A model generated the notes under the pieces. It worked only from the letters and a program-made list of their open reading frames with translations, was not told the origin of the DNA and did no database searches. A DNA stretch of 64,000 nucleotides, taken from IMG/VR virus record IMGVR_UViG_3300025168_000032, positions 121,653 to 185,652 of that record, one strand, 5' to 3'. Source of the DNA: a virus. Position numbers and translations under genes: made by a program. Position 1 is the stretch's first letter. Each line of letters begins with the position of its first letter. Positions 29,311 through 43,674 of the stretch are shown here, one piece after another.

Positions 29311-29675
29311 GTTATTTTAAGAAGTTTATAGCAATTTCAGCTTTTATGATGGCACCTTTCTACGAAGCTTGTGCAATGCGAGTTCTTATAAAGGATAATC
29401 ATTACACAACCCAGTCAGCGACCACAGTCTACAACGTAGAAGAGTACCACAAAGAGACTCAACAACCCCAACCCACAGTTGGGTCACAAAGTCCAACATC
29501 CAAGCGCAAAATAAAGCGTAAAAAGAAAGCAATACGCAGAGTTCCCAAGCACAAAAAAAGAAAAAAGATTAGTAAGCGTCCATCTCGTAAAGTTAAAAAA
29601 GAATGGAAGCGAAAAGGCAGAAAAGCAGTTAATAAAAGAAATAAAAAACACAAATATAAAAAAAGGGACAAATAA
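29307..29675 (+). CDS. Exported protein with a very basic tail
   Basis: A 122-residue protein with an N-terminal signal-like helix (KKFIAISAFMMAPFYEACA). From about residue 65 to the end, roughly half the residues are Lys or Arg in short runs. The tail looks like a nucleic-acid or LPS-binding region. The last codons (GAC AAA TAA) form the left half of dyad element 1. No family was recognised. Confidence 0.6.
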   Translation: MSYFKKFIAISAFMMAPFYEACAMRVLIKDNHYTTQSATTVYNVEEYHKETQQPQPTVGSQSPTSKRKIKRKKKAIRRVPKHKKRKKISKRPSRKVKKEWKRKGRKAVNKRNKKHKYKKRDK

Positions 29676-29725
29676 TGTCCTACCCGTATACTACCTACTA
29701 TGATACATTATAGACAAGACAGGAG
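29666..29725 (+). promoter_or_regulatory. Dyad promoter element 1
   Basis: GGACA-AATAA-TGTCC (29666-29680) joined to TACCC. TACATT -10 at 29704-29709, dyad centre 31 bp upstream of it, then AGGAG at 29721. First of 18 related modules. It drives the membrane peptide at 29732. Confidence 0.75.
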
Positions 29726-29731
29726 AGTGCG

Positions 29732-29863
29732 ATGAAAAACAACCTATTTATTTTGATATCAGTGGCACTTCTTATTGTAGTGGCTGATCCCAGATGGGCT
29801 TTCCTGATTTCTTGTTTAGTTTTAACCACAATATTGCTTTCCATTGGAGGTAACAATGAGTAG
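29732..29863 (+). CDS. Small membrane protein
   Basis: A 43-residue, almost entirely hydrophobic protein with two short membrane segments around a DPRW turn (LFILISVALLIVV and AFLISCLVLTTILLSI). First gene after dyad element 1. It overlaps the next gene by 8 nt. Confidence 0.55.
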   Translation: MKNNLFILISVALLIVVADPRWAFLISCLVLTTILLSIGGNNE

Positions 29864-30149
29864 TTTATTTTTTGGAGGGGAAAAAGCCCCTAAAGAGGAA
29901 GCAGAAGCAGCCCTCATGAAAGACATGGTAGAATATACCGATAACCGATTTTGGGTCCGTTTCGAGAGTGATGACACCAGCACACATCTAACCGCCATTA
30001 TTGAGAGTAAGCACAACGCCACATCTTCACTATTTAAGTTAAAAAAACCTTTGCCGGCTAAATATATGGGCTGGCGATTGATTGTTAAATCAGTTCCGCC
30101 TAACTATATAGAATATATTTTGCTTGCAAAGGAGAAAGCTAATGATTAG
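29856..30149 (+). CDS. Hypothetical protein
   Basis: A 97-residue protein, MSSLFFGGEKAPKEEAEAAL at the start, then beta-rich RFWVRFESDD and LTAIIESKHN. ATG 29856 follows TTGGAGG. No family was recognised. Confidence 0.6.
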   Translation: MSSLFFGGEKAPKEEAEAALMKDMVEYTDNRFWVRFESDDTSTHLTAIIESKHNATSSLFKLKKPLPAKYMGWRLIVKSVPPNYIEYILLAKEKAND

Positions 30150-30324
30150 GCCATTTAAAATAACAAAAAAACACTTAGGTAAGTACGAAGAACTCTCAAA
30201 TTATGATCTTGGAATGTATGCAATCCAAGTCAGACCAGAACAACCCCTGATGGTGTACGAAACCATTCAGATAGCGGTCAAAGCATACAGTTATTTTCAG
30301 AACATAATCAAAAAGGACAATTAA
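30142..30324 (+). CDS. Small hypothetical protein
   Basis: A 60-residue protein. AAAGGAG precedes ATG 30142. The C-terminus IIKKDN and its stop codon are encoded by the left half of dyad element 2. Confidence 0.55.
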   Translation: MIRPFKITKKHLGKYEELSNYDLGMYAIQVRPEQPLMVYETIQIAVKAYSYFQNIIKKDN

Positions 30325-30376
30325 TGTCCTACCCACCTACCCCCGAGCATGATATGTTATGTATACAACCAAGGAG
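30315..30376 (+). promoter_or_regulatory. Dyad promoter element 2
   Basis: GGACA-ATTAA-TGTCC (30315-30329) plus TACCC. TATGTT -10 at 30353-30358, AAGGAG at 30371. Drives the gene at 30382. Confidence 0.8.
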
Positions 30377-30381
30377 ATAGT

Positions 30382-30627
30382 ATGAATGAGAAACTTGAAG
30401 CGATCAAAGAAGCAATAACCTTTATTAGGCACAATTGGCTCGATAACTCTGGTATATGGAGAGGCGAACTAAATGACTTTGTTGGGGCCATCAAACTAAG
30501 CAATGTCTCAGGTCGCGAGGTCACGCGCTTAGTCAAAGCTATTGCTGATGGTGAACACACACCAGTAGACGGGATAACTGGAACTTTACTTGGAGGAAAG
30601 TTGACAATCGTTAGGGTTTCGAGATGA
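30382..30627 (+). CDS. Hypothetical helical protein
   Basis: An 81-residue protein; MNEKLEAIKEAITFIRHNW and VSGREVTRLVKAIADG are helices, with a closing KLTIVRVSR strand. ATGA overlap with the zinc-knuckle gene suggests co-translation. Confidence 0.6.
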   Translation: MNEKLEAIKEAITFIRHNWLDNSGIWRGELNDFVGAIKLSNVSGREVTRLVKAIADGEHTPVDGITGTLLGGKLTIVRVSR

Positions 30628-31418
30628 TAGGTATAGAGTGGGGATCAGGAACTGTACGTTGCAGCTTTTGTGGCAAAAGGGGGCACAATATCTCCTCCTG
30701 TAGCCATGTCGAGGAAGTATTCCAGACCATCACGAAGAACAACCAAGACACAACAGATCTAACGTTCACTCAAAGACAAGCCGTGCATGAAATGAAAAAT
30801 AGAACCGTCCGAAACCAAAAAAGAAAAAACCGTAGAAATGCTAAGAAAGGCTCACGCTGTTCTTTTTGTAGAGAGGGAGGGCACAGGAGAACTACCTGCA
30901 CTAAACACAAGTCTTTTGGAAAAAAAATATATAGAGCAAACCAAATCTGGAAAAAAGAGTTTGCTGAACTTGTTAACGAGACTGGAATAGGCGTAGGGTC
31001 GCTTATCGAGTTTCCGAGAGCTTCAATCATGTGGTATGCAGCAGATAACGACAAACTAAGGGGAATAGTTACTGCTTTTAATATGGATAGCCTAAACATA
31101 TTTTCTGCTTGGCCTAATCAAGATAAATACAGAACCGTACCCAATATGATTGTTGTAGACTGTGCGGATTATAAGCAGGTTAATTGGCCATTCAATAAAA
31201 TCCAGCCGTTTGTTGATAACGGCCTAACTTTATCACGATGGGGTAACGTCACAACCGATATTATTTGTAGTGCTCCATGGCAGCCACCTACTGGGTGGCT
31301 GGAAAGCAAAGAAAACCCAGAGATTGAATATGTACTTGGCAGTCTTTCTCGTGAACATAGAGCGTATGCAGCAATTGACACCCTTGTAAAAAACTGGCTA
31401 AACAGGGATAATAAATGA
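30624..31418 (+). CDS. Double CCHC zinc-knuckle protein (paralogue A)
   Basis: A 264-residue protein. Two C-x2-C-x4-H-x4-C knuckles: C13/C16/H21/C26 (CSFCGKRGHNISSC) and C79/C82/H87/C92 (CSFCREGGHRRTTC), separated by a Lys/Arg-rich linker. A module with IGVGSLIEF, GIVTAFNMDSLNIF follows, which looks like the VGDLV barrel. Zinc knuckles usually bind single-stranded RNA or DNA and are common in retroviral and eukaryotic proteins but rare in phages. A paralogue lies at 34018. Confidence 0.75.
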   Translation: MIGIEWGSGTVRCSFCGKRGHNISSCSHVEEVFQTITKNNQDTTDLTFTQRQAVHEMKNRTVRNQKRKNRRNAKKGSRCSFCREGGHRRTTCTKHKSFGKKIYRANQIWKKEFAELVNETGIGVGSLIEFPRASIMWYAADNDKLRGIVTAFNMDSLNIFSAWPNQDKYRTVPNMIVVDCADYKQVNWPFNKIQPFVDNGLTLSRWGNVTTDIICSAPWQPPTGWLESKENPEIEYVLGSLSREHRAYAAIDTLVKNWLNRDNK

Positions 31419-31723
31419 GCAAGACGCTTAGGAGAGCAGTGATACGCTCAAGAACAAACAGCGAATGGTATAACACCAAAAGGCGGTCAAAAAATGACCT
31501 ACCCGATTCACCAAAGGCAAGATATATTACTAACACACCCAAGGAGGATGTAATGGTTGACGTTGACAAGATAATACAATATGAAAATGGAGAGATGCAG
31601 GAAGATGAAGTAATAGAGTTCTTTCAAGAGCTTATTAACACAGGTCATGCTTGGACCCTCCAAGGGCATTACGGTAGAGTTGCCAGCGGTCTTATTAAGG
31701 CTGGCCTCTGTACAAGACCATGA
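31415..31723 (+). CDS. Small protein read through dyad element 3
   Basis: The 102-residue frame overlaps the knuckle gene by 4 nt and runs through dyad element 3 in frame. ATG 31553, with AAGGAGG upstream, gives a 56-residue protein (DEVIEFFQELINTG, TLQGHYGRVASGLIKAG) typical of a small phage family. That start is the more likely functional one. The first 28 codons (basic, MSKTLRRAVIRSRTNSEWY) may be a separate remnant fused when the element was inserted or the stop was lost. Confidence 0.6.
   Translation: MSKTLRRAVIRSRTNSEWYNTKRRSKNDLPDSPKARYITNTPKEDVMVDVDKIIQYENGEMQEDEVIEFFQELINTGHAWTLQGHYGRVASGLIKAGLCTRP
31485..31547 (+). promoter_or_regulatory. Dyad promoter element 3 (inside an open frame)
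   Basis: GGTCA-AAAAA-TGACC (31485-31499) plus TACCC. TATATT -10 at 31523-31528, AAGGAGG at 31541. It serves the 56-residue gene at 31553. Confidence 0.8.
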
Positions 31724-31887
31724 TGATCGGGGACTTGATCTATATTTCAGATTGGAAGGAGTATGCTATTGTAATGGAGAAGGGCGAGGTTTTTACTGAT
31801 GAATGCTCATGGCGCGTGTCGATTATCTCAGACCCTGAATTGGTCGAAGTTTTTAGTTATGAGATGGAGGTGATTAATGAAGCATGA
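31720..31887 (+). CDS. VGDLV-family small protein
   Basis: A 55-residue protein; MMIGDLIYISDWKEYAIVME then WRVSIISD. It starts on the ATGATG overlapping the previous stop and overlaps the next start. Confidence 0.6.
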   Translation: MMIGDLIYISDWKEYAIVMEKGEVFTDECSWRVSIISDPELVEVFSYEMEVINEA

Positions 31888-32095
31888 ACCAGCTAAATAC
31901 GAAGTTGGTGACTTGGTTGGCATTGGCTGGAATGGTAAGTTAAAATGCCCAAATCCAGCCATTGTGATAAAGGTTTTAGACCCCGTTTCTATCTCTTGCG
32001 GTAGCACCTTGTATGTCGTCAGACCAGTTAAGGACCATGAGAGTGAGAGTTGGTGTGACTATACGCATCTGACCCCTTGGGTAACGGACAAATAA
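31877..32095 (+). CDS. VGDLV-family small protein
   Basis: A 72-residue protein; KYEVGDLVGIGWNG, PAIVIKVLDPV, TLYVVRPVK and a closing HLTPWVTDK. The terminal TDK-stop is the left half of dyad element 4. Confidence 0.65.
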   Translation: MKHEPAKYEVGDLVGIGWNGKLKCPNPAIVIKVLDPVSISCGSTLYVVRPVKDHESESWCDYTHLTPWVTDK

Positions 32096-32147
32096 TGTCC
32101 TACCCACCTACCCCTGCCTGTGATATACTATATACATAACCAAGGAG
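32086..32147 (+). promoter_or_regulatory. Dyad promoter element 4
   Basis: GGACA-AATAA-TGTCC (32086-32100) plus TACCC. TATACT -10 at 32124-32129, AAGGAG at 32142. Confidence 0.8.
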
Positions 32148-32153
32148 AACAAA

Positions 32154-32207
32154 ATGAACGAACATGAAGAAGAAGAAAGAATGTGGAGAACGTGGGGTGA
32201 CCAATGA
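32154..32207 (+). CDS. 17-residue leader peptide
   Basis: ATG 32154 follows AAGGAGAACAAA and encodes MNEHEEEERMWRTWGDQ. Its TGA overlaps the ATG of the next gene. It has the best ribosome site of the operon, so it is probably translated, either to couple translation of the VGDLV gene or as a sensor of translation. Confidence 0.5.
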   Translation: MNEHEEEERMWRTWGDQ

Positions 32208-32377
32208 AAGTAGGAGATTTAGTAAGATACGATATGGATGATCTTTGCGTAGGTGTTGTCACCTGCATCGATCCAGAAGAGCTTGGTGATGATGGCGAAG
32301 TGGAAGTCGTTTGGGTCGGTGGTGCTGTAAGCAACCATTCAACTTATTTTTTGGAGGTGATCAGTGAAAATAAATGA
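32204..32377 (+). CDS. VGDLV-family small protein
   Basis: A 57-residue protein; MKVGDLVRYDMDDLCVGVVT, EVEVVWVGGAVS and YFLEVISENK. A clear three-strand family member, coupled to the leader peptide through ATGA. Confidence 0.65.
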   Translation: MKVGDLVRYDMDDLCVGVVTCIDPEELGDDGEVEVVWVGGAVSNHSTYFLEVISENK

Positions 32378-32558
32378 TTTAGTAAAAGTAGGTGACTTAG
32401 TAAGGTACAAACATCGTTACATAGGAGAACAGTTTGTAGTTGTAGCCGTTCGCACAAACCACACCAGCCCCAAACGTCTAAAGGTGCTGTGCGTATCAGC
32501 CAAGACCCTAAAAAAAACAAGATGGTCTTGGTCATCGACCGTTAGTGTGCTTGCGTGA
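32364..32558 (+). CDS. VGDLV-family small protein
   Basis: A 64-residue protein from GTG 32364 after TTGGAGG. It begins with a duplicated opening (INDLVKVGDLVRYKHR). The C-terminus is basic and Ser/Trp-rich. Confidence 0.6.
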   Translation: MKINDLVKVGDLVRYKHRYIGEQFVVVAVRTNHTSPKRLKVLCVSAKTLKKTRWSWSSTVSVLA

Positions 32559-32761
32559 ATGTTGGTGATTTGGTCTGGGTATACCGCAATGCTCACCCAA
32601 GCCGAGAAAGGTTTATAGGTGTGATCACTGAGATCGAAGACCCTTGGGGTTCGGATCGTGGGTGTAGCGTGTTTGTTACCTTTTTTGACGGAGACTGGGG
32701 AGTATATCACCCATCCCAAATCAATCTTATCCCAAAAGAGAAAGAACATGAAAGTAGGTGA
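32555..32761 (+). CDS. VGDLV-family small protein
   Basis: A 68-residue protein from GTG 32555; MNVGDLVWVYRNAHP, RFIGVITEIEDP, SVFVTFFDGDWGVYHPSQI. The H-P-S-Q turn recurs in the next gene. Confidence 0.65.
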   Translation: MNVGDLVWVYRNAHPSRERFIGVITEIEDPWGSDRGCSVFVTFFDGDWGVYHPSQINLIPKEKEHESR

Positions 32762-32912
32762 TTTAATAGTGCCAACCAAAAGGATGCGAGACTTCGGCTA
32801 TCACGAGGTTGGTATTGTAATTAGGATATGGGGTGGCAGATCGGTGGTCGCCTTTCCAGATGGAAGCTCCCAGACTTTCCACCCATCTCAATTGAAACCG
32901 GACAAAAATTGA
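32748..32912 (+). CDS. VGDLV-family small protein
   Basis: A 54-residue protein; MKVGDLIVPTKRM, EVGIVIRIWGG, SVVAFPDGSSQTFHPSQLK. It ends PDKN-stop within dyad element 5, the same ending as the gene at 35564. Confidence 0.65.
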   Translation: MKVGDLIVPTKRMRDFGYHEVGIVIRIWGGRSVVAFPDGSSQTFHPSQLKPDKN

Positions 32913-32961
32913 CCTACCCATGTACCCCCGAGCATGATATATTATATGTAGACCCAAGGAG
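32900..32961 (+). promoter_or_regulatory. Dyad promoter element 5
   Basis: GGACA-AAAAT-TGACC (32900-32914; half-sites differ at the third base) plus TACCC. TATATT -10 at 32938-32943, AAGGAG at 32956. Confidence 0.8.
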
Positions 32962-32966
32962 AAACC

Positions 32967-33671
32967 ATGAGAAGAAGAACATCAGAAGAAATCGCAGCAG
33001 CGATTGAAAGAGCAGAACAAATGGGAAGACATAGATCCGTAAAGGTTATGGCTGATATGAAAACGCAATTTGACAGCCGAGGGTGTCTATCAGATCGCCA
33101 ATGGGACTACTTGAACAAACTTATGCTTGATAATTGCAAAGCAGCATTGGTGGATTTTAATGAATACTTTGAACGCTTTACCACAGATAAAGAGTTTAGG
33201 GAAAAGGCGGAGGTCGTGTCTCGATATTACCAAGGGGCCGGACAATACTACGTCAGAGCAGCGACGCAAACACTGATAGCATTAAAGAGTAATGACAAGA
33301 ATGATTTGCCACCGTACCATTCTTTTTCCAAAATGATAAATAACAAATACGCTGATAAGGTATGGGATAGCCATAGTAAACCACCTTTATATTCAGCAGG
33401 TGACTTGATAAAAATACGCTCTACTGGTATCAATCGGATATGGAGCCAAAGAAAAAGCACCGAAGAGGAGCAAGCTGGGATCGAGAACCTCAACAGCCAC
33501 CCTTGTTTGGTCATCAAGGCAAACGCGAAACCCATCACTACTGCGCTTCAATACAAACCAAAACAGGGTGGCGCAAGGGTTTACTCTGTTATGCCAGTCG
33601 GCAGCACGTTGATTTACTATATCTTAGAATGTGATTTGAAGAAGAATCGCACACCAAAAGCCAAAAAATAG
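32967..33671 (+). CDS. Hypothetical protein with C-terminal GDLI barrel
   Basis: A 234-residue protein. The first about 145 residues are helical and charged. The C-terminal part contains SAGDLIKIRSTG, PCLVIKANAK, ARVYSVMPVGS and YYILECDLK, which follows the VGDLV pattern. So the family also occurs as a domain of a larger protein. The helical part is not recognised. Confidence 0.65.
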   Translation: MRRRTSEEIAAAIERAEQMGRHRSVKVMADMKTQFDSRGCLSDRQWDYLNKLMLDNCKAALVDFNEYFERFTTDKEFREKAEVVSRYYQGAGQYYVRAATQTLIALKSNDKNDLPPYHSFSKMINNKYADKVWDSHSKPPLYSAGDLIKIRSTGINRIWSQRKSTEEEQAGIENLNSHPCLVIKANAKPITTALQYKPKQGGARVYSVMPVGSTLIYYILECDLKKNRTPKAKK

Positions 33672-33679
33672 GGACTGAT

Positions 33680-33946
33680 ATGGATATTATATTTGAAGAG
33701 GTGCCGCTGCCATTCAAACTTGGCCTTGGAAACAAAAATGGCAAGATAACAAGAGTGCTGGTGCACCATAAGGGAAATTTTTATATAGTATCAGAGAACA
33801 CAGCCCTAAAAGAGACGCTGGTTTTTCCTGCTTCTCCAACGGGCGAGATACTTGACTGGGTTGAAGTGGGCGGCGGAGACGGATTAACACTAAAAGAGGT
33901 TTTGGCTAACTTCGACCAGAACCTACATTCCGAGATGTATTTTTAA
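33680..33946 (+). CDS. Small hypothetical protein
   Basis: An 88-residue protein, beta-rich (ITRVLVHHKGNFYIVSEN), with a helical end (LTLKEVLANFDQNL). GGGACTGAT precedes the ATG. No family was recognised. Confidence 0.6.
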   Translation: MDIIFEEVPLPFKLGLGNKNGKITRVLVHHKGNFYIVSENTALKETLVFPASPTGEILDWVEVGGGDGLTLKEVLANFDQNLHSEMYF

Positions 33947-33949
33947 GCC

Positions 33950-34011
33950 GGACATTTTCTGACCTACCCATCTACCCCTGCCCATGATACATTGTATACA
34001 GAACCAAGGAG
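33950..34011 (+). promoter_or_regulatory. Dyad promoter element 6
   Basis: GGACA-TTTTC-TGACC (33950-33964) plus TACCC. TACATT -10 at 33988-33993, AAGGAG at 34006. Drives zinc-knuckle paralogue B. Confidence 0.8.
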
Positions 34012-34017
34012 AACCCA

Positions 34018-34887
34018 ATGAAAATATTTGAAGAAAAGAACAGACCCACACACAAAAGCAGTGCGAACGCTTGTGGCTATTGCCGCAACACAGGACACAA
34101 TAGATCCAACTGTCCTCATGCACCAGAAGACTGGTCACACTTTACCACTTATCAAATACCATTGAAGACCTCAAAGGTACAATCTCAATGGATAAAGTAT
34201 CCAAAGTATTGGGGTGCTTGGTATGAAGAGTGTAAAAAGACTGTGGAACTTCAACAGCGCAATGCACAAAAGGTCAAGGCTAAAAGATCGACAACCAGAC
34301 ACTGTGGTTTCTGTGGTGATGCTGGTCACACTCGTCGTAACTGCTCAGAGATGGAGGAGTTCCTTAAACAGTGCTACAAAGCCAATGAGAACTGGCGAAG
34401 GGCTGCATACAACATTCTCGTTAAAGAGCATGGCATTGATATAGGGGCAGCGGTGCAAGTTTCCCAAAGTCAGTGGGTTGGGGGTGAGAATATTAAGACT
34501 GAACATATTGGACTCATCACCTCCGTTAATTGGGATAGTTTAAATGTTATGACTGCTTATGACAGCGGCTATGATTGGCAGCGGTATGCCCAATGTATTG
34601 ACGTTAGGGTCATGGTTGACGGAAAAGATCATCGTCTTTCACTAAAAGACAAGCTTCACGGTACGTCTCTTTCAGAGGTAATCAACAAGAGAAACACAAA
34701 TACAGGCTATTATTATCAGCAACTTTCCTTAGACAAGGTGATCGGCAAGTCAGCGCAGCCACTAAAAGAAGAATGGGTCACGTCTTACAAAGACGCTTTT
34801 GATTACCTTGCTAAGAAGCTTAGTTTAGAACAGCTTGAAGATCGTGGGATACTCAGTCATATCCAAAGCTGGGCAAATCGGTCATAA
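34018..34887 (+). CDS. Double CCHC zinc-knuckle protein (paralogue B)
   Basis: A 289-residue paralogue of the protein at 30624. Knuckles at C19/C22/H27/C32 (CGYCRNTGHNRSNC) and C96/C99/H104/C109 (CGFCGDAGHTRRNC). After them come CYKANENWRRAAYNI and IGAAVQVSQSQW...GLITSVNWDSLNVM, aligned with paralogue A. Has its own dyad promoter. The repeated architecture suggests RNA- or ssDNA-binding proteins. Confidence 0.75.
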   Translation: MKIFEEKNRPTHKSSANACGYCRNTGHNRSNCPHAPEDWSHFTTYQIPLKTSKVQSQWIKYPKYWGAWYEECKKTVELQQRNAQKVKAKRSTTRHCGFCGDAGHTRRNCSEMEEFLKQCYKANENWRRAAYNILVKEHGIDIGAAVQVSQSQWVGGENIKTEHIGLITSVNWDSLNVMTAYDSGYDWQRYAQCIDVRVMVDGKDHRLSLKDKLHGTSLSEVINKRNTNTGYYYQQLSLDKVIGKSAQPLKEEWVTSYKDAFDYLAKKLSLEQLEDRGILSHIQSWANRS

Positions 34888-34941
34888 TCTGTCCTACCCA
34901 ATTCCTATCCACCATGATACATTGTATACAGAACCAAGGAG
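34880..34941 (+). promoter_or_regulatory. Dyad promoter element 7
   Basis: GGTCA-TAATC-TGTCC (34880-34894) plus TACCC. TACATT -10 at 34918-34923, AAGGAG at 34936. Drives a five-gene run of VGDLV genes. Confidence 0.8.
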
Positions 34942-34947
34942 AACAAA

Positions 34948-35100
34948 ATGAAGTTTAAAGTAGGAGATTTAGTAAAGACCCACCGTGGCAATGTTGCCCT
35001 CGTTACAGAGGTTGGCGAAGACTGGTGCAATATACTATTTTGCAACAGTGGGTTTTTAAGAACTGGCTTTCCAGCGTGGTGGTTAGAGGTGGTACAATGA
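34948..35100 (+). CDS. VGDLV-family small protein
   Basis: A 50-residue protein; MKFKVGDLVKTHRGNVALVT, WCNILFCNSG, WWLEVVQ. First of five tandem copies. Confidence 0.65.
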   Translation: MKFKVGDLVKTHRGNVALVTEVGEDWCNILFCNSGFLRTGFPAWWLEVVQ

Positions 35101-35246
35101 AAATCGGTGATTTAGTAAAATACGATTACGATGGAGATACCGGCATAGTCATTGACATAGATGCAACTGGTATGCTTTTCGTTCACTGGAGTGACGGCAA
35201 AGAAGGGTGGCATATCCACAGCGAGTTGGAGGCAGTATGCAAGTAG
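35097..35246 (+). CDS. VGDLV-family small protein
   Basis: A 49-residue protein; MKIGDLVKYDYDGDTGIVID, MLFVHWSDGKEGWHIHSELE and AVCK. A near-minimal version of the family with all three strands. ATGA overlap. Confidence 0.7.
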   Translation: MKIGDLVKYDYDGDTGIVIDIDATGMLFVHWSDGKEGWHIHSELEAVCK

Positions 35247-35392
35247 GTGATTTAGTCAAGAACAGGCACGGCAACACGGGGATCATTACAAAACGATATG
35301 GCTTCAAGAAACGGAGGACTTGGTGGGTGCATTGGCTTTGTGGTGAGGACTGCCCGATTCATGAGCGATTTGTGGAGGCAGTATGCAGATAG
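35237..35392 (+). CDS. VGDLV-family small protein
   Basis: A 51-residue protein; MQVGDLVKNRHGNTGIITKR, TWWVHWLCGEDC, EAVCR. Its start GGAGGCAGTATGCAAGTAGG recurs at other copies almost unchanged. Confidence 0.7.
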   Translation: MQVGDLVKNRHGNTGIITKRYGFKKRRTWWVHWLCGEDCPIHERFVEAVCR

Positions 35393-35619
35393 GTGATTTA
35401 GTAAGGATAGATAAGAGTTCCGCTATGGTTGGTCACGTTGGCAAGGTGGGCTTAGTTGTCAGAAGAGTGAAACAAACATTGAAGCCATCTAACACGTGGC
35501 TGATCGCGTTTTCAGATGGCAGTACGGTTATTTTTCATAGAGTAGATTTATTAGAGGTGCCAAATGAAAATAGGAGATTTAGTACAACTATCAGCTTATG
35601 GGGAAGCGAGGAACCATAA
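35383..35619 (+). CDS. VGDLV-family protein with read-through tail
   Basis: A 78-residue protein; MQIGDLVRIDKSS, KVGLVVRRVKQT, TWLIAFSDGSTVIFHRVDLLEV. Relatives stop just after the LEV strand. Here the frame continues 19 more codons, overlapping the next gene by 56 nt, as if an ancestral stop was lost. Confidence 0.6.
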   Translation: MQIGDLVRIDKSSAMVGHVGKVGLVVRRVKQTLKPSNTWLIAFSDGSTVIFHRVDLLEVPNENRRFSTTISLWGSEEP

Positions 35620-35779
35620 CCACGGTTGGTATGGTGGCTGGGGGCTTATATTGGAAATCCATAATGACTCAACCTATCCCATCAAAGCCCAGTGGTACAA
35701 TACCCGTAGTGGCAAAGATCAAGGCGGAGCGCGATTCCACCCAAGAGAATTGAAGAAATATAAACCGGACAAAAATTGA
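35564..35779 (+). CDS. VGDLV-family small protein
   Basis: A 71-residue protein; MKIGDLVQLSAYGEAR, GWGLILEIHND, IKAQWYNTRSG, then PDKN-stop inside dyad element 8. Confidence 0.65.
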   Translation: MKIGDLVQLSAYGEARNHNHGWYGGWGLILEIHNDSTYPIKAQWYNTRSGKDQGGARFHPRELKKYKPDKN

Positions 35780-35828
35780 CCTACCCATTTACCCCTGACC
35801 ATGCTATATTATGTACAGAACCAAGGAG
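35767..35828 (+). promoter_or_regulatory. Dyad promoter element 8
   Basis: GGACA-AAAAT-TGACC (35767-35781) plus TACCC. TATATT -10 at 35805-35810, AAGGAG at 35823. Drives four more tandem VGDLV genes. Confidence 0.8.
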
Positions 35829-35834
35829 AACAAA

Positions 35835-36005
35835 ATGCAAGTAGGTGATTTAATGATTGACGAAAAGACCTTGAGGGAAATAGGGGAAGCAGTTTATGTC
35901 ATCTTTCTTGGTTACAACCAATGGGGTGAGATCAAGGTTATGCTTCCAGACGGATTTGTTTACCAAGGCTGCGAATTGGACTTCAAGGAGGTAGTATGCA
36001 AGTAG
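35835..36005 (+). CDS. VGDLV-family small protein
   Basis: A 56-residue protein; MQVGDLMIDEKTLREIGEAV, YVIFLGYNQWGEIKVMLPDG, KEVVCK. A Met replaces the Val of GDLV. Confidence 0.65.
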   Translation: MQVGDLMIDEKTLREIGEAVYVIFLGYNQWGEIKVMLPDGFVYQGCELDFKEVVCK

Positions 36006-36214
36006 GTGATTTAGTAAAGCAAAAAAGCGATTGGGTTCGGCACAATCCGTGGATGAGTGGTACTGAACTTGATGACAGCCCAGACATCTTGGGAATTATA
36101 GTAAAGGTTGAGGTTCCAGCGTGTTCCATAACATCTGGCTGGTATATAATTGAATGGCTGAACGGTGGAAGGAACCACACAAAAGGAGACAGGTTGGAGG
36201 CAATATGCAAGTAG
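35996..36214 (+). CDS. VGDLV-family small protein
   Basis: A 72-residue protein; MQVGDLVKQKSDWVRHNPW, ILGIIVKVEVPA, GWYIIEWLNGG, LEAICK. GGAGGTAGT before the ATG is also the end of the previous gene. Confidence 0.65.
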   Translation: MQVGDLVKQKSDWVRHNPWMSGTELDDSPDILGIIVKVEVPACSITSGWYIIEWLNGGRNHTKGDRLEAICK

Positions 36215-36417
36215 GAGATTTGGTAACAAGAGATAAGTACCACATGAGTCATGGCAAATTATTCGGAACCATCGTAAAAAGGAAGCCGCTGGAATTTTGC
36301 TTGGGCCCCGACGGAAAGCAGGCATATCAATATAAAATCTATTGGTTGTGTTGTCAAACAAAGATTTGTGCCGATGACTGGTGGATCGATCAATTTTTGG
36401 AGGCAGTATGCAAGTAG
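36205..36417 (+). CDS. VGDLV-family small protein
   Basis: A 70-residue protein; MQVGDLVTRDKYHMSHG, LFGTIVKRKPLEF, YKIYWLCCQTKICADDW, LEAVCK. Four cysteines in the middle strands are specific to this copy. Confidence 0.65.
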   Translation: MQVGDLVTRDKYHMSHGKLFGTIVKRKPLEFCLGPDGKQAYQYKIYWLCCQTKICADDWWIDQFLEAVCK

Positions 36418-36584
36418 GTGATTTGGTAACCCACAGACCAACAGGAGCGGTGGGTATTATTATAGAAGAGAACGGGACCAGTGTCTGTATCGTGTGGAAC
36501 TACGACCCATTGCATAAAGACGAGGGTGAAGAGGAGTGGATAAGCAAGTTTTTCATCGAAAACCTAAAACCGGTCAAAAAATGA
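36408..36584 (+). CDS. VGDLV-family small protein
   Basis: A 58-residue protein; MQVGDLVTHRPTGAVGIIIE, SVCIVWNYDP, PVKK-stop. The last codons (GTC AAA AAA TGA) lie in dyad element 9. Confidence 0.65.
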   Translation: MQVGDLVTHRPTGAVGIIIEENGTSVCIVWNYDPLHKDEGEEEWISKFFIENLKPVKK

Positions 36585-36633
36585 CCTACCCATCCACCCC
36601 TGCCTATGCTATATTATATACATAACCAAGGAG
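36572..36633 (+). promoter_or_regulatory. Dyad promoter element 9
   Basis: GGTCA-AAAAA-TGACC (36572-36586) plus TACCC. TATATT -10 at 36610-36615, AAGGAG at 36628. Confidence 0.8.
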
Positions 36634-36640
36634 AAAACTT

Positions 36641-36931
36641 ATGACCTTTCGCAATATGAAACAACTAAAATCTTTCAGTCACTCGCAAGGATGGCACTAC
36701 TTTGCTTGGGATGTTGTGCATGGTCGTCGAACCCAAAAGACCCCACCTTATGGAGGCTGCGTTTTTGTAGCATCGGAGAAACATAGTGATGGAACTCGAT
36801 ACTACGATATTCTTAGAATTATGCCCTTGGGTAACATTAAGTATGTACCCAGCAATAGGCCGTTCACGAACAGAAAGAAAGCTCACGCTTTTGCAAAAGC
36901 CTTCGCAAAGAAAATCTCACAACGGACATAA
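36641..36931 (+). CDS. Hypothetical protein
   Basis: A 96-residue protein. GWHYFAWDVVHGRRTQ and GCVFVASEKHSDGTRYYDILRI form strands, followed by a basic helix (RKKAHAFAKAFAKKIS). No family was recognised. Own dyad promoter. Confidence 0.6.
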   Translation: MTFRNMKQLKSFSHSQGWHYFAWDVVHGRRTQKTPPYGGCVFVASEKHSDGTRYYDILRIMPLGNIKYVPSNRPFTNRKKAHAFAKAFAKKISQRT

Positions 36932-36986
36932 ATTGTCCTACCCATTCAGACTGAAACAGCATATATTACTTATACCAACCAAGGAG
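36924..36986 (+). promoter_or_regulatory. Dyad promoter element 10
   Basis: GGACA-TAAAT-TGTCC (36924-36938) plus TACCC. TATATT -10 at 36962-36967, AAGGAG at 36981. Confidence 0.8.
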
Positions 36987-36991
36987 AGAGC

Positions 36992-37216
36992 ATGTCAAAA
37001 CAAACAACATTCATCGTATCAGGCTGGGTAGAGCGTCACTACCGACTGGAAATAGAAGCTTCTTCTTATGAGGAGGCAGAAAGGATAGCAGAGAGCAAGC
37101 TTGATTATTCAGAGGGTTCCGAGCTTGATGATTATGAGGATGGTACACACGTTCGCATTAGTGATGTAGAGTGTGAAGACCCCGAATGGGATGAAGAATC
37201 CGAAGAAGAATTATAA
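36992..37216 (+). CDS. Acidic hypothetical protein
   Basis: A 74-residue protein; FIVSGWVERHYRLEIEASS then a Glu-rich helix (YEEAERIAESKL) and a very acidic end (DPEWDEESEEEL). Acidic tails can mimic nucleic acid, but there is no direct evidence for that here. Confidence 0.6.
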   Translation: MSKQTTFIVSGWVERHYRLEIEASSYEEAERIAESKLDYSEGSELDDYEDGTHVRISDVECEDPEWDEESEEEL

Positions 37217-37219
37217 AAC

Positions 37220-37263
37220 GGACAAAAAATGTCCTACCCAAACAGACCTAAACTACTTATATT
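37220..37263 (+). promoter_or_regulatory. Dyad promoter element 11
   Basis: GGACA-AAAAA-TGTCC (37220-37234) plus TACCC. TATATT -10 at 37258-37263. The leader is longer than usual, with AAAGGAG at 37299 before the MoxR gene. Confidence 0.8.
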
Positions 37264-37312
37264 ATAGATACAAAACAAACACAAACTTTAACTTTCCAAA
37301 AGGAGTCCTATC

Positions 37313-38368
37313 ATGGCTATCGACTTTCGTACTTACAACTCAGTTATTCACCTCGTCATCAATGCAAAGTTTCCTATACTTATTCGTGGTCGTCACGGTG
37401 TTGGGAAATCAGAGCTTGTCTATAAGACAGCAAAAGACCTTGGTCTGCCTATCGTTGAGCGTCGAGCCTCACAGATGACAGAAGGCGACTTACTCGGCCT
37501 ACCAAAGGTAGAGAAGGGTATCACTAAGTGGCTTGCCCCTGAGTGGTTGCACAATGCCTGTAAAAACCCTGTGGTCCTTTTCCTCGACGAGGTTGATCGA
37601 GCTACAATGGAAGTCCGTCAAGGTATCTTTGAGCTTTGCGATAGCCGTAAAATCGCTGGCTACACCCTTCATCCAGATACTCTCATCTTTGCCGCTGTTA
37701 ACGGTGGAGAGCACGGTGCCCAGTACCAAGTAGGAGAGATGGACCCTGCTGAACTTGACCGCTACACTGTCTTTGATGTGGAGCCTACTACTGAAGATTG
37801 GCTGGATTGGGCTTCTGACCGTGTATCCTCAGAAGTCTGGGACTTTATTAACGCTAACCATAGTCATTTAGAGCACAAGGATGAGTATGAGCCTAACAAG
37901 GTTTACCCTTCTCGACGCTCTTGGGTTCGCCTTGACAAGGCCCTTAAAGGCTTAAAGCAAATCGAGCATGGTACTACACTATACCACCTTAGCCACGCCT
38001 TCGTAGGTATGGAGGCTGCGGTTGCTTTCAACGACTTCATCCAGAACTATGAACGTCAGGTCACTGTAGAAGACATCCTTGACAGAGGTAAGTTTGAACT
38101 CATGAAGGACTGGAAAAACAATGATCACCTTGCTCTTATCGAGAAGATGAAGGCAGAAAAGATATTTGATGAGGATCTTAGTGATGTTCGCACTGCTAAC
38201 CTTGCCGAGTATTTCGTAATTCTCCCAAGTGAGATCGCCATGACCATTTGGACCAACATCGGCAAAGGAAAAGTGCAGTCTAACATCGCAGCTTTCCACG
38301 GGCAAATCACAAAAGCTGGCGTAGTTGTTAAAATGCACCTTGTAAAGCTTCTATCGAAGGAGGTATAA
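37313..38368 (+). CDS. MoxR-family AAA+ ATPase
   Basis: A 351-residue AAA+ protein. Walker A GRHGVGKS at residues 26-33, Walker B FLDEVD at about 90-95, sensor-1-like NGG (IFAAVNGG) and an arginine-containing PAELDRYTVFDVE segment match MoxR ATPases. MoxR proteins typically work with VWA-domain partners encoded beside them, and such a partner lies at 38640. Own dyad promoter with a long leader. The target of the pair is unknown. Confidence 0.85.
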   Translation: MAIDFRTYNSVIHLVINAKFPILIRGRHGVGKSELVYKTAKDLGLPIVERRASQMTEGDLLGLPKVEKGITKWLAPEWLHNACKNPVVLFLDEVDRATMEVRQGIFELCDSRKIAGYTLHPDTLIFAAVNGGEHGAQYQVGEMDPAELDRYTVFDVEPTTEDWLDWASDRVSSEVWDFINANHSHLEHKDEYEPNKVYPSRRSWVRLDKALKGLKQIEHGTTLYHLSHAFVGMEAAVAFNDFIQNYERQVTVEDILDRGKFELMKDWKNNDHLALIEKMKAEKIFDEDLSDVRTANLAEYFVILPSEIAMTIWTNIGKGKVQSNIAAFHGQITKAGVVVKMHLVKLLSKEV

Positions 38369-38369
38369 T

Positions 38370-38582
38370 ATGAATACCATATATGTAACACCAACCCCAG
38401 CTAACTATTTTACTACTGGACTTGGGGTATTCAACAAAGCTAAGAGAAGAAAGCCCAAGTCACGCAATGTTGTCCAGCAAAACCACATTCAACAGAATCG
38501 CAAGGCTGGTCCCCACAAAGACAAGAAGAAAGAACAAAGCAGAAAGAAATGTAGACAAAGAGTGAGAACGGACAGTTTTTGA
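38370..38582 (+). CDS. Small basic protein between MoxR and VWA genes
   Basis: A 70-residue Lys/Arg/Gln-rich, probably disordered protein (KAKRRKPKSRNV, KDKKKEQSRKKCRQRVR). It starts two bases after the MoxR stop with GGAGGTATAAT upstream. Its end lies in dyad element 12. It could be an adaptor or nucleic-acid-binding protein. Confidence 0.55.
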   Translation: MNTIYVTPTPANYFTTGLGVFNKAKRRKPKSRNVVQQNHIQQNRKAGPHKDKKKEQSRKKCRQRVRTDSF

Positions 38583-38631
38583 CCTACCCACATACCACAT
38601 GCCGCGATATATTATAGACATATCCAAGGAG
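38570..38631 (+). promoter_or_regulatory. Dyad promoter element 12
   Basis: GGACA-GTTTT-TGACC (38570-38584) plus TACCC. TATATT -10 at 38608-38613, AAGGAG at 38626. Drives the VWA gene. Confidence 0.8.
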
Positions 38632-38639
38632 TAATAGAA

Positions 38640-39821
38640 ATGACCAAGTTTGATTTAAATGAATACACGTTTTCGCTACTGAGACAGGAGCCGTTTTTTG
38701 CGGCCTTGTCTCGACGCATTACAAAGATGTCCACCAAGTCTATTCCTACCGCTGGTGTCTGTATCAACAAAAACACAGCCCAGTTTGAGATGGTATACAA
38801 CCCCGAGTTTATGGGGGACTTGTCCACAACGCACCTACAGGGGGTCTTGATGCACGAGTTCTATCATATCATCTTTGAGCATGTTACTGGTCGTTTACCC
38901 CCAGAAGGCATGAATATTATGTGGAACATTGCTACTGATCTTGCCATCAATAGCCATATAGCTGATAAACTTCCAGAGCAAGCCTGCATCCCCGGCCAAG
39001 GCCGATTTGAAGAGTATGAAACAGGCCTATCAGCAGAGCAATATTATTCTCAACTAAAGAAAGATGAGCAGTTTAAACCCAAGGACGGTGATGACGGTGA
39101 GGGCAAGGGAGGTGAAGGTCAACCCAACAGCCTTGATGATCACTCTGGTTGGGGTAATGCCGATGCAGAGACGAAGGCTATGGCTAAAGAGCGACTACGC
39201 CAAGCTGTAGAGGATGCGGCTAAAGAAGCCAGTAGCAAAGGTTCATGGGGTAGTGTATCCGCTGAGATGAGAAAGAAGATTATGGATATGATTAATCCAA
39301 AAGTCGATTGGAGAAAGGTGCTACGTTACTTCATTAAGACATCGCAACGCTCCAACAAGCGTAGCACCGTTCGACGAATTAACAAGCGTTTTCCCTACAT
39401 TCATGCTGGTAAGAAGGTGACACGTCATGCGAAAATCGCCATCTCTATCGATCAGTCTGGCTCTGTATCTGACAAGATGCTTGCAGCATTCTTCGCTGAA
39501 CTTGGTTCACTTGCCAAATATGCCGAGTTCACTGTCATACCCTTTGATACTGAGGTTATGGAAGAGCATGTGTATGTATGGAAAAAGGGCAAGCGTAAGA
39601 CGTGGGAACGTGTCATGTGCGGTGGAACCTGCTTTGATGCTCCCACCAAGTATGTAAACAGCAAACAGTTTGATGGTCATATAGTGCTGAGTGATATGTG
39701 TGCTCCTAAACCCATCCCTTCTAAGTGTCAACGCATGTGGATGACAGATACAGAGGGCAAAAACGCTCAATATTTCACTACAAATGAAAGGGTTATAGTC
39801 ATAGAGGGCAATAGTGAGTAA
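38640..39821 (+). CDS. VWA-domain putative metallopeptidase (MoxR partner)
   Basis: A 393-residue protein. The N-terminal part has a zinc-protease motif H72-E-F-Y-H76 within LMHEFYHIIFEH, and NIATDLAINSHI further on. A charged, Gly/Glu-rich linker follows. The C-terminal VWA-like domain has the MIDAS motif D271-Q-S-G-S and CGGTCFDAP. This is the layout of predicted VWA-like metallopeptidases paired with MoxR ATPases in bacteria. Both genes have separate dyad promoters, so they are probably co-regulated. Confidence 0.8.
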   Translation: MTKFDLNEYTFSLLRQEPFFAALSRRITKMSTKSIPTAGVCINKNTAQFEMVYNPEFMGDLSTTHLQGVLMHEFYHIIFEHVTGRLPPEGMNIMWNIATDLAINSHIADKLPEQACIPGQGRFEEYETGLSAEQYYSQLKKDEQFKPKDGDDGEGKGGEGQPNSLDDHSGWGNADAETKAMAKERLRQAVEDAAKEASSKGSWGSVSAEMRKKIMDMINPKVDWRKVLRYFIKTSQRSNKRSTVRRINKRFPYIHAGKKVTRHAKIAISIDQSGSVSDKMLAAFFAELGSLAKYAEFTVIPFDTEVMEEHVYVWKKGKRKTWERVMCGGTCFDAPTKYVNSKQFDGHIVLSDMCAPKPIPSKCQRMWMTDTEGKNAQYFTTNERVIVIEGNSE

Positions 39822-40038
39822 ATCCGAAAATAGGGCCGTTTTGAACGATTATTATATGTCCGTTGGGGACTTGGTTGAAGATAGAGTTGTAAATCCGAAT
39901 ACCATAGGTCAAAGGATAGGTATAGTCTTAAGGATCGACTCAGCTTGGACAGTCAACGCAACATATCTCGTTCAATGGAATGGCTGGGTTAATCCCATAC
40001 CATATAAAGATTGGGAAATCAGAAAAGTGGTCAAATAA
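39814..40038 (+). CDS. VGDLV-family small protein
   Basis: A 74-residue protein from GTG 39814, overlapping the VWA gene. YYMSVGDLVEDRVV, RIGIVLRIDSA and TYLVQWNGW fit the family. It ends VVK-stop in dyad element 13. ATG 39856 is an alternative start without a ribosome site. Confidence 0.6.
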   Translation: MSKSENRAVLNDYYMSVGDLVEDRVVNPNTIGQRIGIVLRIDSAWTVNATYLVQWNGWVNPIPYKDWEIRKVVK

Positions 40039-40090
40039 TGACCTACCCACCTACCCCTGTACGCGCTACATTATATATACAACCAAGGAG
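40029..40090 (+). promoter_or_regulatory. Dyad promoter element 13
   Basis: GGTCA-AATAA-TGACC (40029-40043) plus TACCC. TACATT -10 at 40067-40072, AAGGAG at 40085. Confidence 0.8.
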
Positions 40091-40099
40091 AATAAGAAA

Positions 40100-40504
40100 A
40101 TGGCTTATTTGAAAACAGACCAAACAGTCTATTTTGCACAAGGTAACATTACTTCAATTGTTGAAAAGGTGGCCTTCCGCAAATACCTTTCCAAGCCCCG
40201 CAAGGATAAGAAGACTGGGGAACGTAGAAGGAAGTGGAAAGCAATGCCTTATGCAGTTTGTAAAGTGCTTTTAAGCGAAGACAACAGCGTCCCAGCCGAT
40301 ACACAATTTTTGATTGCTGGTTACCGTCTTAACCAAAAATACTTACAGGGAAAGATGATCCTTGTGATGGGTAACGAGCATATAGCAGACTATCAAGAAG
40401 AATGGGGAAACCAGTGGGTTAGCAACATGATTAAACAGGAGAATGAATATGAAGAACAACGAAAGAAAAAGGCGGCTGAGTATCGGGCGAAGAATAATAA
40501 ATAA
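40100..40504 (+). CDS. Hypothetical protein
   Basis: A 134-residue protein; TVYFAQGNITSIVEKVAF, a basic loop (KPRKDKKTGERRRKWK), YAVCKVLLSED, then a charged C-terminal helix. The start is fixed by AAGGAG and dyad element 13. No family was recognised. Confidence 0.65.
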   Translation: MAYLKTDQTVYFAQGNITSIVEKVAFRKYLSKPRKDKKTGERRRKWKAMPYAVCKVLLSEDNSVPADTQFLIAGYRLNQKYLQGKMILVMGNEHIADYQEEWGNQWVSNMIKQENEYEEQRKKKAAEYRAKNNK

Positions 40505-40505
40505 G

Positions 40506-40601
40506 ATGGAAAATATAGTCTTAGGGATAGGGTTAGTAAGTTTTGTATATTGTGCAGTGATCAGGAGGAGTTTCGGCTATGGTAAAGAAAACAAACATTA
40601 A
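40506..40601 (+). CDS. Tiny membrane peptide
   Basis: A 31-residue ORF with one membrane helix (IVLGIGLVSFVYCAVI) and a basic end. It starts one base after the previous stop and overlaps the next gene. Confidence 0.4.
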   Translation: MENIVLGIGLVSFVYCAVIRRSFGYGKENKH

Positions 40602-40794
40602 ACAGCGCAAATTTTCGATAAAACTAAAGACCTGCTTCGTGTTGCAGGTCCACTTAGAAGAACTCGATATGATAAAGGAAACAGCAAGTCAATTCCCTGA
40701 GCCTGTCCCTGAGCATGATGAGTTTATAGAAATGATGGTTGAAGCCCTCTGTAAGTCTCTCTATATCATTTTTCCTAATCCTTTTGACGCATAG
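40579..40794 (+). CDS. Hypothetical protein
   Basis: A 71-residue protein with a basic start (KKTNIKQRKFSIKLK) and helical acidic end. AGGAGG precedes the ATG. No family was recognised. Confidence 0.55.
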   Translation: MVKKTNIKQRKFSIKLKTCFVLQVHLEELDMIKETASQFPEPVPEHDEFIEMMVEALCKSLYIIFPNPFDA

Positions 40795-40802
40795 ACCCAA
40801 AC

Positions 40803-40863
40803 GGACACCTTTTGTCCTACCCAACCAGACCAGAACAAGATATATTATATATACCAACCAAGG
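40803..40863 (+). promoter_or_regulatory. Dyad promoter element 14
   Basis: GGACA-CCTTT-TGTCC (40803-40817) plus TACCC. TATATT -10 at 40841-40846, AAGG at 40860. Confidence 0.8.
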
Positions 40864-40870
40864 AAACAAA

Positions 40871-41119
40871 ATGGAAAATCAAGCTGACCTTTACAAAACC
40901 ACCATCACCGATACTATTGATGACTTCCAGAGCTTAATGGCCAAAGACCTTGGTAATATTAAGAAGCTTATCAGCATAATGGAAGCAGACCCATCACGTA
41001 TGCCATCGCTTACAACCAACCTATCTCAGTTAGCCGCAAGCCTTCAAGAGAATACCAATGCAATGCGAGCACTGCAAAATGTGGCTCTGTATGTTGACAG
41101 AGAAGCGAAGTACAGATAA
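40871..41119 (+). CDS. Helical hypothetical protein
   Basis: An 82-residue, almost wholly helical protein (TITDTIDDFQSLMAKDLGNI, LSQLAASLQENTNAMRALQN). Likely oligomeric. Own dyad promoter, single gene. Confidence 0.6.
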   Translation: MENQADLYKTTITDTIDDFQSLMAKDLGNIKKLISIMEADPSRMPSLTTNLSQLAASLQENTNAMRALQNVALYVDREAKYR

Positions 41120-41120
41120 C

Positions 41121-41182
41121 GGACATTTTTTGTCCTACCCAAAGAGACTGAAACAAGATATATTATTAACACAACCAAGGAG
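41121..41182 (+). promoter_or_regulatory. Dyad promoter element 15
   Basis: GGACA-TTTTT-TGTCC (41121-41135) plus TACCC. TATATT -10 at 41159-41164, AAGGAG at 41177. Confidence 0.8.
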
Positions 41183-42694: not shown

Positions 42695-42747
42695 GGACAT
42701 ATTGTGACCGCTTTCACGTTTGACAGAGGATATCATCGGGTTATATT
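42695..42747 (+). promoter_or_regulatory. Dyad promoter element 16 (variant with -35)
   Basis: GGACA-TATTG-TGACC (42695-42709), then TTGACA (42720-42725), 16 bp, TATATT (42742-42747). The dyad centre is 40 bp before the -10, 9 bp further than in elements 1-15, and no CTACCC follows. A leader of about 90 nt follows. Confidence 0.75.
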
Positions 42748-42985: not shown

Positions 42986-43038
42986 GGACATAAATTGACC
43001 GGTTATGGATTCGACAGCAGACCCCAACGAGTTATATT
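42986..43038 (+). promoter_or_regulatory. Dyad promoter element 17 (variant with -35)
   Basis: GGACA-TAAAT-TGACC (42986-43000), TCGACA (43011-43016), 16 bp, TATATT (43033-43038). Dyad centre 40 bp before the -10. Confidence 0.75.
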
Positions 43039-43410: not shown

Positions 43411-43622
43411 GCCGTCAATCCACTTTAGTTCTCGCTGTTATCGTCGATGTCGCCTGTTGGTCCACCTTAATCCTTTTGCTTGTGCTCTTCCTTCCTTCAT
43501 GCGCTAAGGTTCCACAAGGCACCGTTACAGCCGTGTATGATGAGGTTGTTGTTGTTGATGCAACTCCCATGGTTATTGCAGTATCCGAAGAAATGACAGC
43601 TACAGAATACATTTTAGAATAG
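43407..43622 (+). CDS. Predicted lipoprotein
   Basis: A 71-residue protein with a hydrophobic N-terminus ending LPSCAK, a plausible lipobox (Cys32), then a Val-rich acidic exported part. Part of the three-gene unit from element 17. Confidence 0.5.
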   Translation: MSRQSTLVLAVIVDVACWSTLILLLVLFLPSCAKVPQGTVTAVYDEVVVVDATPMVIAVSEEMTATEYILE

Positions 43623-43674
43623 GACATTTTCTGTCCGGTGTCTTGTTTGACAGACCCTGTCACAATGTTATATT
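43622..43674 (+). promoter_or_regulatory. Dyad promoter element 18 (variant with -35)
   Basis: GGACA-TTTTC-TGTCC (43622-43636), TTGACA (43647-43652), 16 bp, TATATT (43669-43674). Dyad centre 40 bp before the -10. Confidence 0.75.

What the first reader, a model, noticed from the sequence alone, without database searches (positions are those of the whole stretch)
29666..41182. Dyad elements double as gene ends: cassette-like modules
In at least ten elements the left half of the dyad encodes the last codons and stop of the preceding gene (GAC AAA TAA, GAC AAA AAT TGA, GTC AAA AAA TGA). Two unrelated neighbours end identically in PDKN. Each unit runs from ribosome site to dyad, so genes can be swapped between uniform ends by recombination. 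This gives a phage-borne, integrase-free gene cassette array.
Basis: partly seen in the sequence, partly recalled or inferred. Interest (0 to 1): 0.7.

Follow-up and report, generated by a model that had tools for sequence, protein, structure and literature searches.

The report
Phage promoters whose operators end genes
In an uncultured T4-type phage (a virus of bacteria), 18 copies of what looks like one protein-docking site on DNA drive a run of small-gene operons; the site is packed so tightly that it also spells the last codons and stop of the gene before it, and neighbouring operons have swapped partners at these sites, much as in known T4-type regulatory cassettes, but without being clear recombination hot spots.

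Summary
Observation confirmed, with corrections. Fifteen + strand elements (GGWCA-N5-TGWCC-TACCC, -10 box at a fixed 23-nt offset) lie at 29666-41164; 0.26 expected by chance. In 10 of 15 the upstream gene stops inside the dyad. The two PDKN genes are KOW-like paralogues, not unrelated, not neighbours. Three more dyads (42695, 42986, 43622) complete an 18-site set; the rest of the 185.7 kb record has none.

The dyad is best read as a DNA operator, probably an activator site: mismatched arm positions do not covary; its distance to the -35 falls into steps of about 0, 6-10, 20 and 30 bp across relatives; abutting dyads have degenerate -35 boxes (4/106 perfect TTGACA), distant ones perfect boxes (31/36).

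The cassette idea is partly supported. Relatives show gene gain, loss and partner exchange with breakpoints at the dyad or ribosome site, but pooled over four genome pairs element junctions break no more often than other junctions (p=0.56). One relative replaced its dyad promoters, keeping left half-sites at three junctions.

Closest known kind: PeSL regulatory cassettes of T4-type phages. Verdict: new variant of that kind, with an operator in place of a terminator. The binding protein is not identified.

The parts
29666..29709 (+). element 1 (dyad to -10); upstream gene 29307-29675 ends inside the dyad (GAC AAA TAA); that gene is absent in relative G001
30315..30358 (+). element 2; gene 30142-30324 ends in the dyad (GAC AAT TAA); decayed element at the same junction in G001
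31485..31528 (+). element 3; upstream ORF reads through it
32086..32129 (+). element 4; gene 31877-32095 ends in the dyad (GAC AAA TAA); this gene lies elsewhere, also before an element, in G001
32900..32943 (+). element 5; gene 32749-32912 ends in the dyad (PDKN*); upstream gene differs in G001
33950..33993 (+). element 6; upstream stop 3 nt before the dyad; shares a 30-nt identical run with element 7
34880..34923 (+). element 7; gene 34018-34887 ends in the dyad (TCA TAA)
35767..35810 (+). element 8; gene 35564-35779 ends in the dyad (PDKN*); in G001 this gene and element precede the orthologue of 34018-34887
36572..36615 (+). element 9; gene 36408-36584 ends in the dyad (GTC AAA AAA TGA); downstream gene differs in G001
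36924..36967 (+). element 10; gene 36641-36931 ends in the dyad (ACA TAA)
37220..37263 (+). element 11, before the AAA ATPase gene 37313-38368; upstream stop 3 nt before the dyad
38570..38613 (+). element 12; gene 38370-38582 ends in the dyad (GAC AGT TTT TGA); before the DUF2201 metallopeptidase/VWA gene 38640-39821
40029..40072 (+). element 13; gene 39814-40038 ends in the dyad (GTC AAA TAA)
40803..40846 (+). element 14; upstream stop 8 nt before the dyad
41121..41164 (+). element 15; upstream stop 1 nt before the dyad
42695..42747 (+). distal-type element: dyad, 10 nt, TTGACA, 16 nt, TATATT
42986..43038 (+). distal-type element: dyad, 10 nt, TCGACA, 16 nt, TATATT
43622..43674 (+). distal-type element: dyad, 10 nt, TTGACA, 16 nt, TATATT
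1006..2094 (+). UvsX-like recombinase gene, candidate machinery for homologous exchange between elements
   Evidence: phrog_97, E=9e-54

Best explanation
The dyads are operators of one dimeric DNA-binding transcription factor, most likely an activator, that serves a regulon of 18 phage promoters. In the 15 elements of the finding the operator abuts a non-consensus -35 (TACCCA) and is centred near -43 if the -10 box starts at -12 (class II geometry). In three more it sits about one helical turn further upstream of a near-consensus TTGACA. Operons are packed end to start, so the operator's left half and A/T-rich centre are read as the last few codons of the upstream gene; a TAA in its spacer, or a TGA made by the T-to-A variant of the right arm, serves as stop. 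Because the copies are similar, ordinary homologous recombination and gene conversion (the phage has a UvsX-like recombinase) copy tracts between them and sometimes rejoin operons at them, so partners change at the dyad or ribosome site. Shown by sequence: element anatomy, stop overlap, arm-stop association, spacing classes, breakpoints, tract sharing. Inferred: that a protein binds, that it activates, and that recombination between elements made the breakpoints.
For: 18 dyads within 14 kb, none in the rest of the record, 0.36 expected; the 15 have the -10 at exactly offset 23. Arm pair 3/13 is mismatched in about a quarter of 110 elements and does not covary (double change expected 2.4, observed 3), so half-sites vary independently. 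Dyad to -35 distances cluster at 0, 6-10, 19-22 and 30 (Rayleigh p about 3e-4 with one value per genome and distance). Perfect TTGACA: 4/106 abutting against 31/36 distal, same direction in every genome with both classes. TGACC arm with frame-2-open upstream gene 13/17 against 22/89, p=8e-5. Element-bounded gene changes. Longest run shared by two window elements 30 nt, p=0.003. No excess of this architecture in 84,980 bacterial and archaeal genomes. Regulon present or absent as a block: 8 of 30 large records have 7-17 perfect dyads, the others 0-1.
Against: No binding protein found: no MotA, HTH_3 or sigma-70 region 4 match in the window's genome; phylogenetic profiles gave no convincing candidate. 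Activation rather than repression is inferred from position only. No transcript data. In the window the -35 is so poor that the promoter assignment itself is inferred. Exchange at elements is not enriched over other gene junctions.
Confidence: 0.62

Rival explanations
1. PeSL-type element: the dyad is an RNA stem-loop that ends the preceding transcript, joined to a promoter for the next operon.
For: The 5-bp stem folds as RNA at -6 to -9 kcal/mol with z of -1.5 to -2.7 in several elements. Order (stem-loop, then promoter) and setting (plastic region of a T4-type phage) match.
Against: No T tract follows on the + strand; the terminator scan lists these dyads only on the - strand. About a quarter of elements break the stem's middle pair without compensation. 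Helical phasing with the -35 is not expected of a terminator.
Confidence: 0.17
2. The dyad is a repressor operator: a phage (or superinfecting phage) repressor bound next to the -35 shuts off early promoters, as with multi-site immunity operators.
For: Position next to or overlapping the -35 region is also usual for repressors; several relatives have near-consensus -35 boxes (TTGACT, TCGACA) that would work without help.
Against: The weak -35 TACCCA in the window with an abutting dyad, perfect -35 with distant dyads, and spacing in helical steps up to 30 bp fit activation better. No HTH_3 repressor found and the genome is of lytic T4 type.
Confidence: 0.15
3. The finding's view: a true cassette array, in which the element is the preferred exchange site and gene exchange is its function.
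For: Gene gain, loss and partner exchange with breakpoints at the dyad or ribosome site in two independent groups; window-G001 alone, counted from G001, 0/7 element junctions conserved against 9/14 others, p=0.007.
Against: The opposite direction of that pair gives p=0.18 and four pairs pooled p=0.56; KOW genes turn over just as fast without elements; dyad-overlapping ends of several genes are conserved in register.
Confidence: 0.15

Closest known systems
PeSLs, mobile regulatory cassettes of T4-type phages (Arbiol et al. 2010, doi 10.1093/gbe/evq006; Comeau et al. 2014, doi 10.1093/gbe/evu129; not held, known through PMC4503421, and own knowledge)
   Same: Repeated composite of a dyad plus a promoter between genes in a plastic region of T4-type phages; linked to gene shuffling without an integrase.
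   Different: Here the dyad looks like a DNA operator, not a terminator; it supplies the stop codon of the upstream gene; the -35 half differs coherently between phages.
SAS/ESAS elements of cluster K mycobacteriophages (PMC12699233)
   Same: Many conserved start-associated elements, some with inverted repeats, in front of genes of one phage; proposed role in expression.
   Different: SAS is GGGATAGGAGCCC at the ribosome site with 17-nt imperfect inverted repeats; no sequence relation; unrelated phage type.
AT-rich intergenic repeats of HF1/HF2 haloviruses (PMC7230728)
   Same: Families of intergenic repeats with promoter activity placed along a tailed-virus genome.
   Different: Archaeal viruses and promoters; no comparable dyad or stop-codon overlap described in the passages read.
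T4 middle promoters with MotA box (own knowledge)
   Same: A bound phage activator replaces the need for a -35 box across a set of promoters.
   Different: The MotA box is centred at -30 and not a dyad; no MotA family match in the window's genome.

Membership tests
PeSL (T4-type mobile regulatory cassette) | carried by a T4-type myovirus | tested here: met
   Gp23 capsid family E=1e-61 in the window's genome; UvsX-like recombinase
PeSL (T4-type mobile regulatory cassette) | repeated intergenic composite of dyad/stem-loop and promoter, dense in a plastic region | tested here: met
   15 + 3 elements in 14 kb; region is gene-poor in conserved neighbours
PeSL (T4-type mobile regulatory cassette) | stem-loop acts as a terminator | tested here: not met
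   No T tract on the + strand; no covariation at the variable pair, about a quarter of stems mismatched; phasing with -35. Sequence test only, no transcript data.
PeSL (T4-type mobile regulatory cassette) | element mediates shuffling of neighbouring genes | tested here: inconclusive
   Element-bounded exchanges seen, but no pooled enrichment over other junctions (p=0.56)
Integron-like gene cassette array | integrase with attC/attI site-specific recombination of single cassettes | not tested
   No integrase search was made; the finding itself says integrase-free. The dyad is joined to a promoter and follows promoters, unlike attC sites.
T4 MotA-dependent middle promoters | MotA activator encoded by the phage | tested here: not met
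   PF09114: no match in the window's genome
Class I/II activator-dependent promoters (functional class) | dimeric site centred near -41.5 replacing the -35, or further upstream in helical steps | tested here: met
   Distance classes and -35 quality; position relative to the actual start is inferred
Class I/II activator-dependent promoters (functional class) | bound activator protein raising transcription | not testable with these tools
   needs binding and reporter assays

The most novel reading that the evidence does not exclude
A phage regulon of 15-18 promoters had its -35 half rewritten in step (TACCC, TGGAC, TCGAC, TTGAC in different relatives) under one conserved operator dyad, by tract exchange among the element copies, so that each lineage has its own -35 code under the same activator; one lineage (G004) replaced its dyad promoters by T-tract TTGACA promoters at orthologous junctions.
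Probability: 0.3. Interest if true: 0.7.

Novelty: new variant of a known kind. Interest (0 to 1): 0.5.

Why it matters
It makes two ideas testable in one system: how a multi-copy regulatory element evolves in concert inside a phage genome, and whether such repeats bring about gene shuffling or merely sit where operons meet. The conserved dyad with lineage-specific -35 boxes and roughly 10-bp spacing steps is a natural experiment on how a bound activator relaxes the need for a -35. The operator-stop overlap is a clear case of one DNA stretch under coding and regulatory constraint at once.

Tried and rejected
RNA hairpin or terminator reading: disfavoured by lack of covariation and by phasing. 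PDKN as a sign of unrelated genes: the proteins are paralogues. Element 31485 as a fresh insertion into a small gene: G001 has a half-decayed element at the same place. Regulator search: MotA, HTH_3 and sigma region 4 not found in the window's genome; a 419-aa protein that first looked tied to the dyads also occurs in dyad-free genomes; the 234-aa protein 32967-33671 belongs to a family also found in dyad-free phages; other profile hits (85) were structural, small or wrong-strand ORFs. Host regulon: a scan of bacterial and archaeal genomes gave 3 hits where about 6 are expected by chance by my estimate. Megablast against cultured phages: no match. Breakpoint enrichment: not significant pooled, marginal in one of three versions. 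A relative of the 289-aa gene 34018-34887 as bait found only four loci.
Full report
What is there. The window lies in a virus record of 185,652 bases (G000) that encodes a T4-type major capsid protein (Gp23 family, E=1e-61), a UvsX-like recombinase, a DNA polymerase and a GroEL. It has no megablast match among 50,697 cultured phage records. Between 29666 and 41164 there are 15 copies of GGWCA-N5-TGWCC-TACCC on the + strand (0.26 expected). Each is followed at exactly 23 nt by a TATATT-like -10 box and nearly all by a CCAAGGAG-like ribosome site close to a start codon. Operons of one to five small genes run from one element to the next.

Gene ends. In 10 of 15 the upstream gene stops inside the dyad, mostly in one frame (G|GAC AAA TAA or G|GAC AAA AAT TGA). 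Over 106 elements in ten genomes 29 stops lie in the dyad, 11 just after it and 42 within 10 nt before it (the caller missed at least one in-dyad stop). In relative G003 genes end in ...KKCP* because TGTCC-TTGA continues the same frame. The right-arm variant TGACC, which breaks the palindrome but gives a TGA, goes with an upstream gene open in that frame in 13 of 17 cases against 22 of 89 (p=8e-5), so an operator base is tied to the stop codon. Uniform ends are not unique to the dyad: KOW-like genes end in VCK* because their stop nests in the next gene's start. The two PDKN proteins are such paralogues.

Relatives. A second genome with TACCC elements, G001 (IMGVR_UViG_3300030329_004812), was found by pattern. 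Others with the same dyad have a different -35 half: TGGAC in G002, TTGAC in G003, TCGAC in G006 and G009, mixed in G005, G007 and G011. Of 30 large related records 8 have 7-17 perfect dyads and the others 0-1. The -35 pentamer is far more alike within genomes (0.87) than between (0.61); the dyad is not (0.81 against 0.78). In most genomes two elements share a longer identical run than column-wise shuffling gives; in the window the 30 nt shared by elements 33950 and 34880 have p=0.003. Tract exchange between copies would produce this.

Exchange at elements. Window against G001: gene 29307-29675 is present in one and absent in the other, with the right break at the dyad; L-element-M and N-element-KOW in the window are L-element-KOW and N-element-M in G001 (L = 33680-33946, M = 34018-34887, N = 35564-35779); the gene before 32967 is replaced with homology starting at the dyad; the gene after element 36572 is replaced with homology ending after the ribosome site. 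G003 against L291, a third member of that group: a KOW gene is missing in L291 and its neighbour runs straight into the dyad; upstream genes differ with homology starting at the dyad in two further cases, one of which places the same gene behind an element at different sites. Against this, adjacency across elements is conserved in 11/35 against 58/151 at other junctions (p=0.56); only when KOW genes are left out is there a marginal effect (5/20 against 37/73, p=0.046, one of three versions tried). Elements are places where operons are joined and rejoined, not proven hot spots.

Promoter replacement. G004, with 87% median protein identity to G003 in this region, has no perfect GGACA-N5-TGTCC dyad in 141 kb. 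At orthologous junctions it has TTTTTTCTTGACA promoters instead, and at three of them (34|35, 49|50, 60|61) it keeps the left half of the dyad. L291 has dyads at the corresponding junctions, so G004 is most simply the changed one.

What the dyad does. The third and thirteenth positions vary independently and mismatch in about a quarter of elements, which argues against an RNA stem. Outside the given coordinates the window holds three more dyads at 42695, 42986 and 43622, each with TTGACA or TCGACA 10 nt further on. In relatives the dyad to -35 distance is 0, 6-10, 19-22 or 30, about one helical turn per step. Abutting dyads have a perfect TTGACA in 4 of 106 cases, distant ones in 31 of 36, in the same direction in every genome with both classes. 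This is the pattern expected of a bound activator on one face of the helix that relaxes the need for a -35 when it sits next to it. It remains inference: no regulator was identified and no host regulon was found.

Limits. Gene calls come from a home-made caller. P-values are not corrected for shared ancestry or for the number of tests. The distal class was found by requiring T[TC]GAC, which biases its -35 upward, though the abutting class judged on the same hexamer (T[TC]GAC only) still gives 4/56 perfect against 29/34. Only one other TACCC genome was found, with about 57% protein identity. The two PeSL papers could not be read; their content is taken from a citing paper (PMC4503421) and own knowledge.

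Verdict. The cassette reading is partly supported. The best description is a dense operator-promoter regulon of an uncultured T4-type phage group, close to PeSLs in setting and behaviour but with an operator in place of a terminator.

Noticed in passing
window 32202-36584: Tandem array of short KOW-like paralogues starting MxVGDLV, whose stops nest in the next gene's start (VCK*). Copy number and order differ strongly between relatives, so they turn over independently of the dyads.
   Followed up: partly
window 42695, 42986, 43622: Three further dyads outside the finding, each with a near-consensus -35 set 10 nt further downstream; they belong to the same operator set.
   Followed up: yes
L130 (G004) and L134 (G005): A second repeated promoter type, TTTTTTCTTGACA without dyad; in G005 both types occur in one genome.
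   Followed up: partly
L130:12378-19578 and L131:12188-17467: Another repeated family, TTGCAA...GTGCCAAA...CATAACTCA, in short tandem groups; unknown, possibly another promoter or binding-site class.
   Followed up: no
G003 region, dyads 36008/36023 and 36328/36343 in the coordinates: Two promoters with tandem double dyads 15 bp apart upstream of one -35.
   Followed up: no
window 24126-25691: GroEL-type chaperonin gene in the phage, 84% identical to that of G001.
   Followed up: no
window 30624-31418 and 34018-34887: Two related genes with CSFC/CGYC zinc-knuckle-like motifs, both in the element region.
   Followed up: no
window 37313-38368 and 38640-39821: AAA ATPase and DUF2201 metallopeptidase/VWA pair, the most conserved genes of the region and useful anchors across at least 80 related contigs.
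   Followed up: partly
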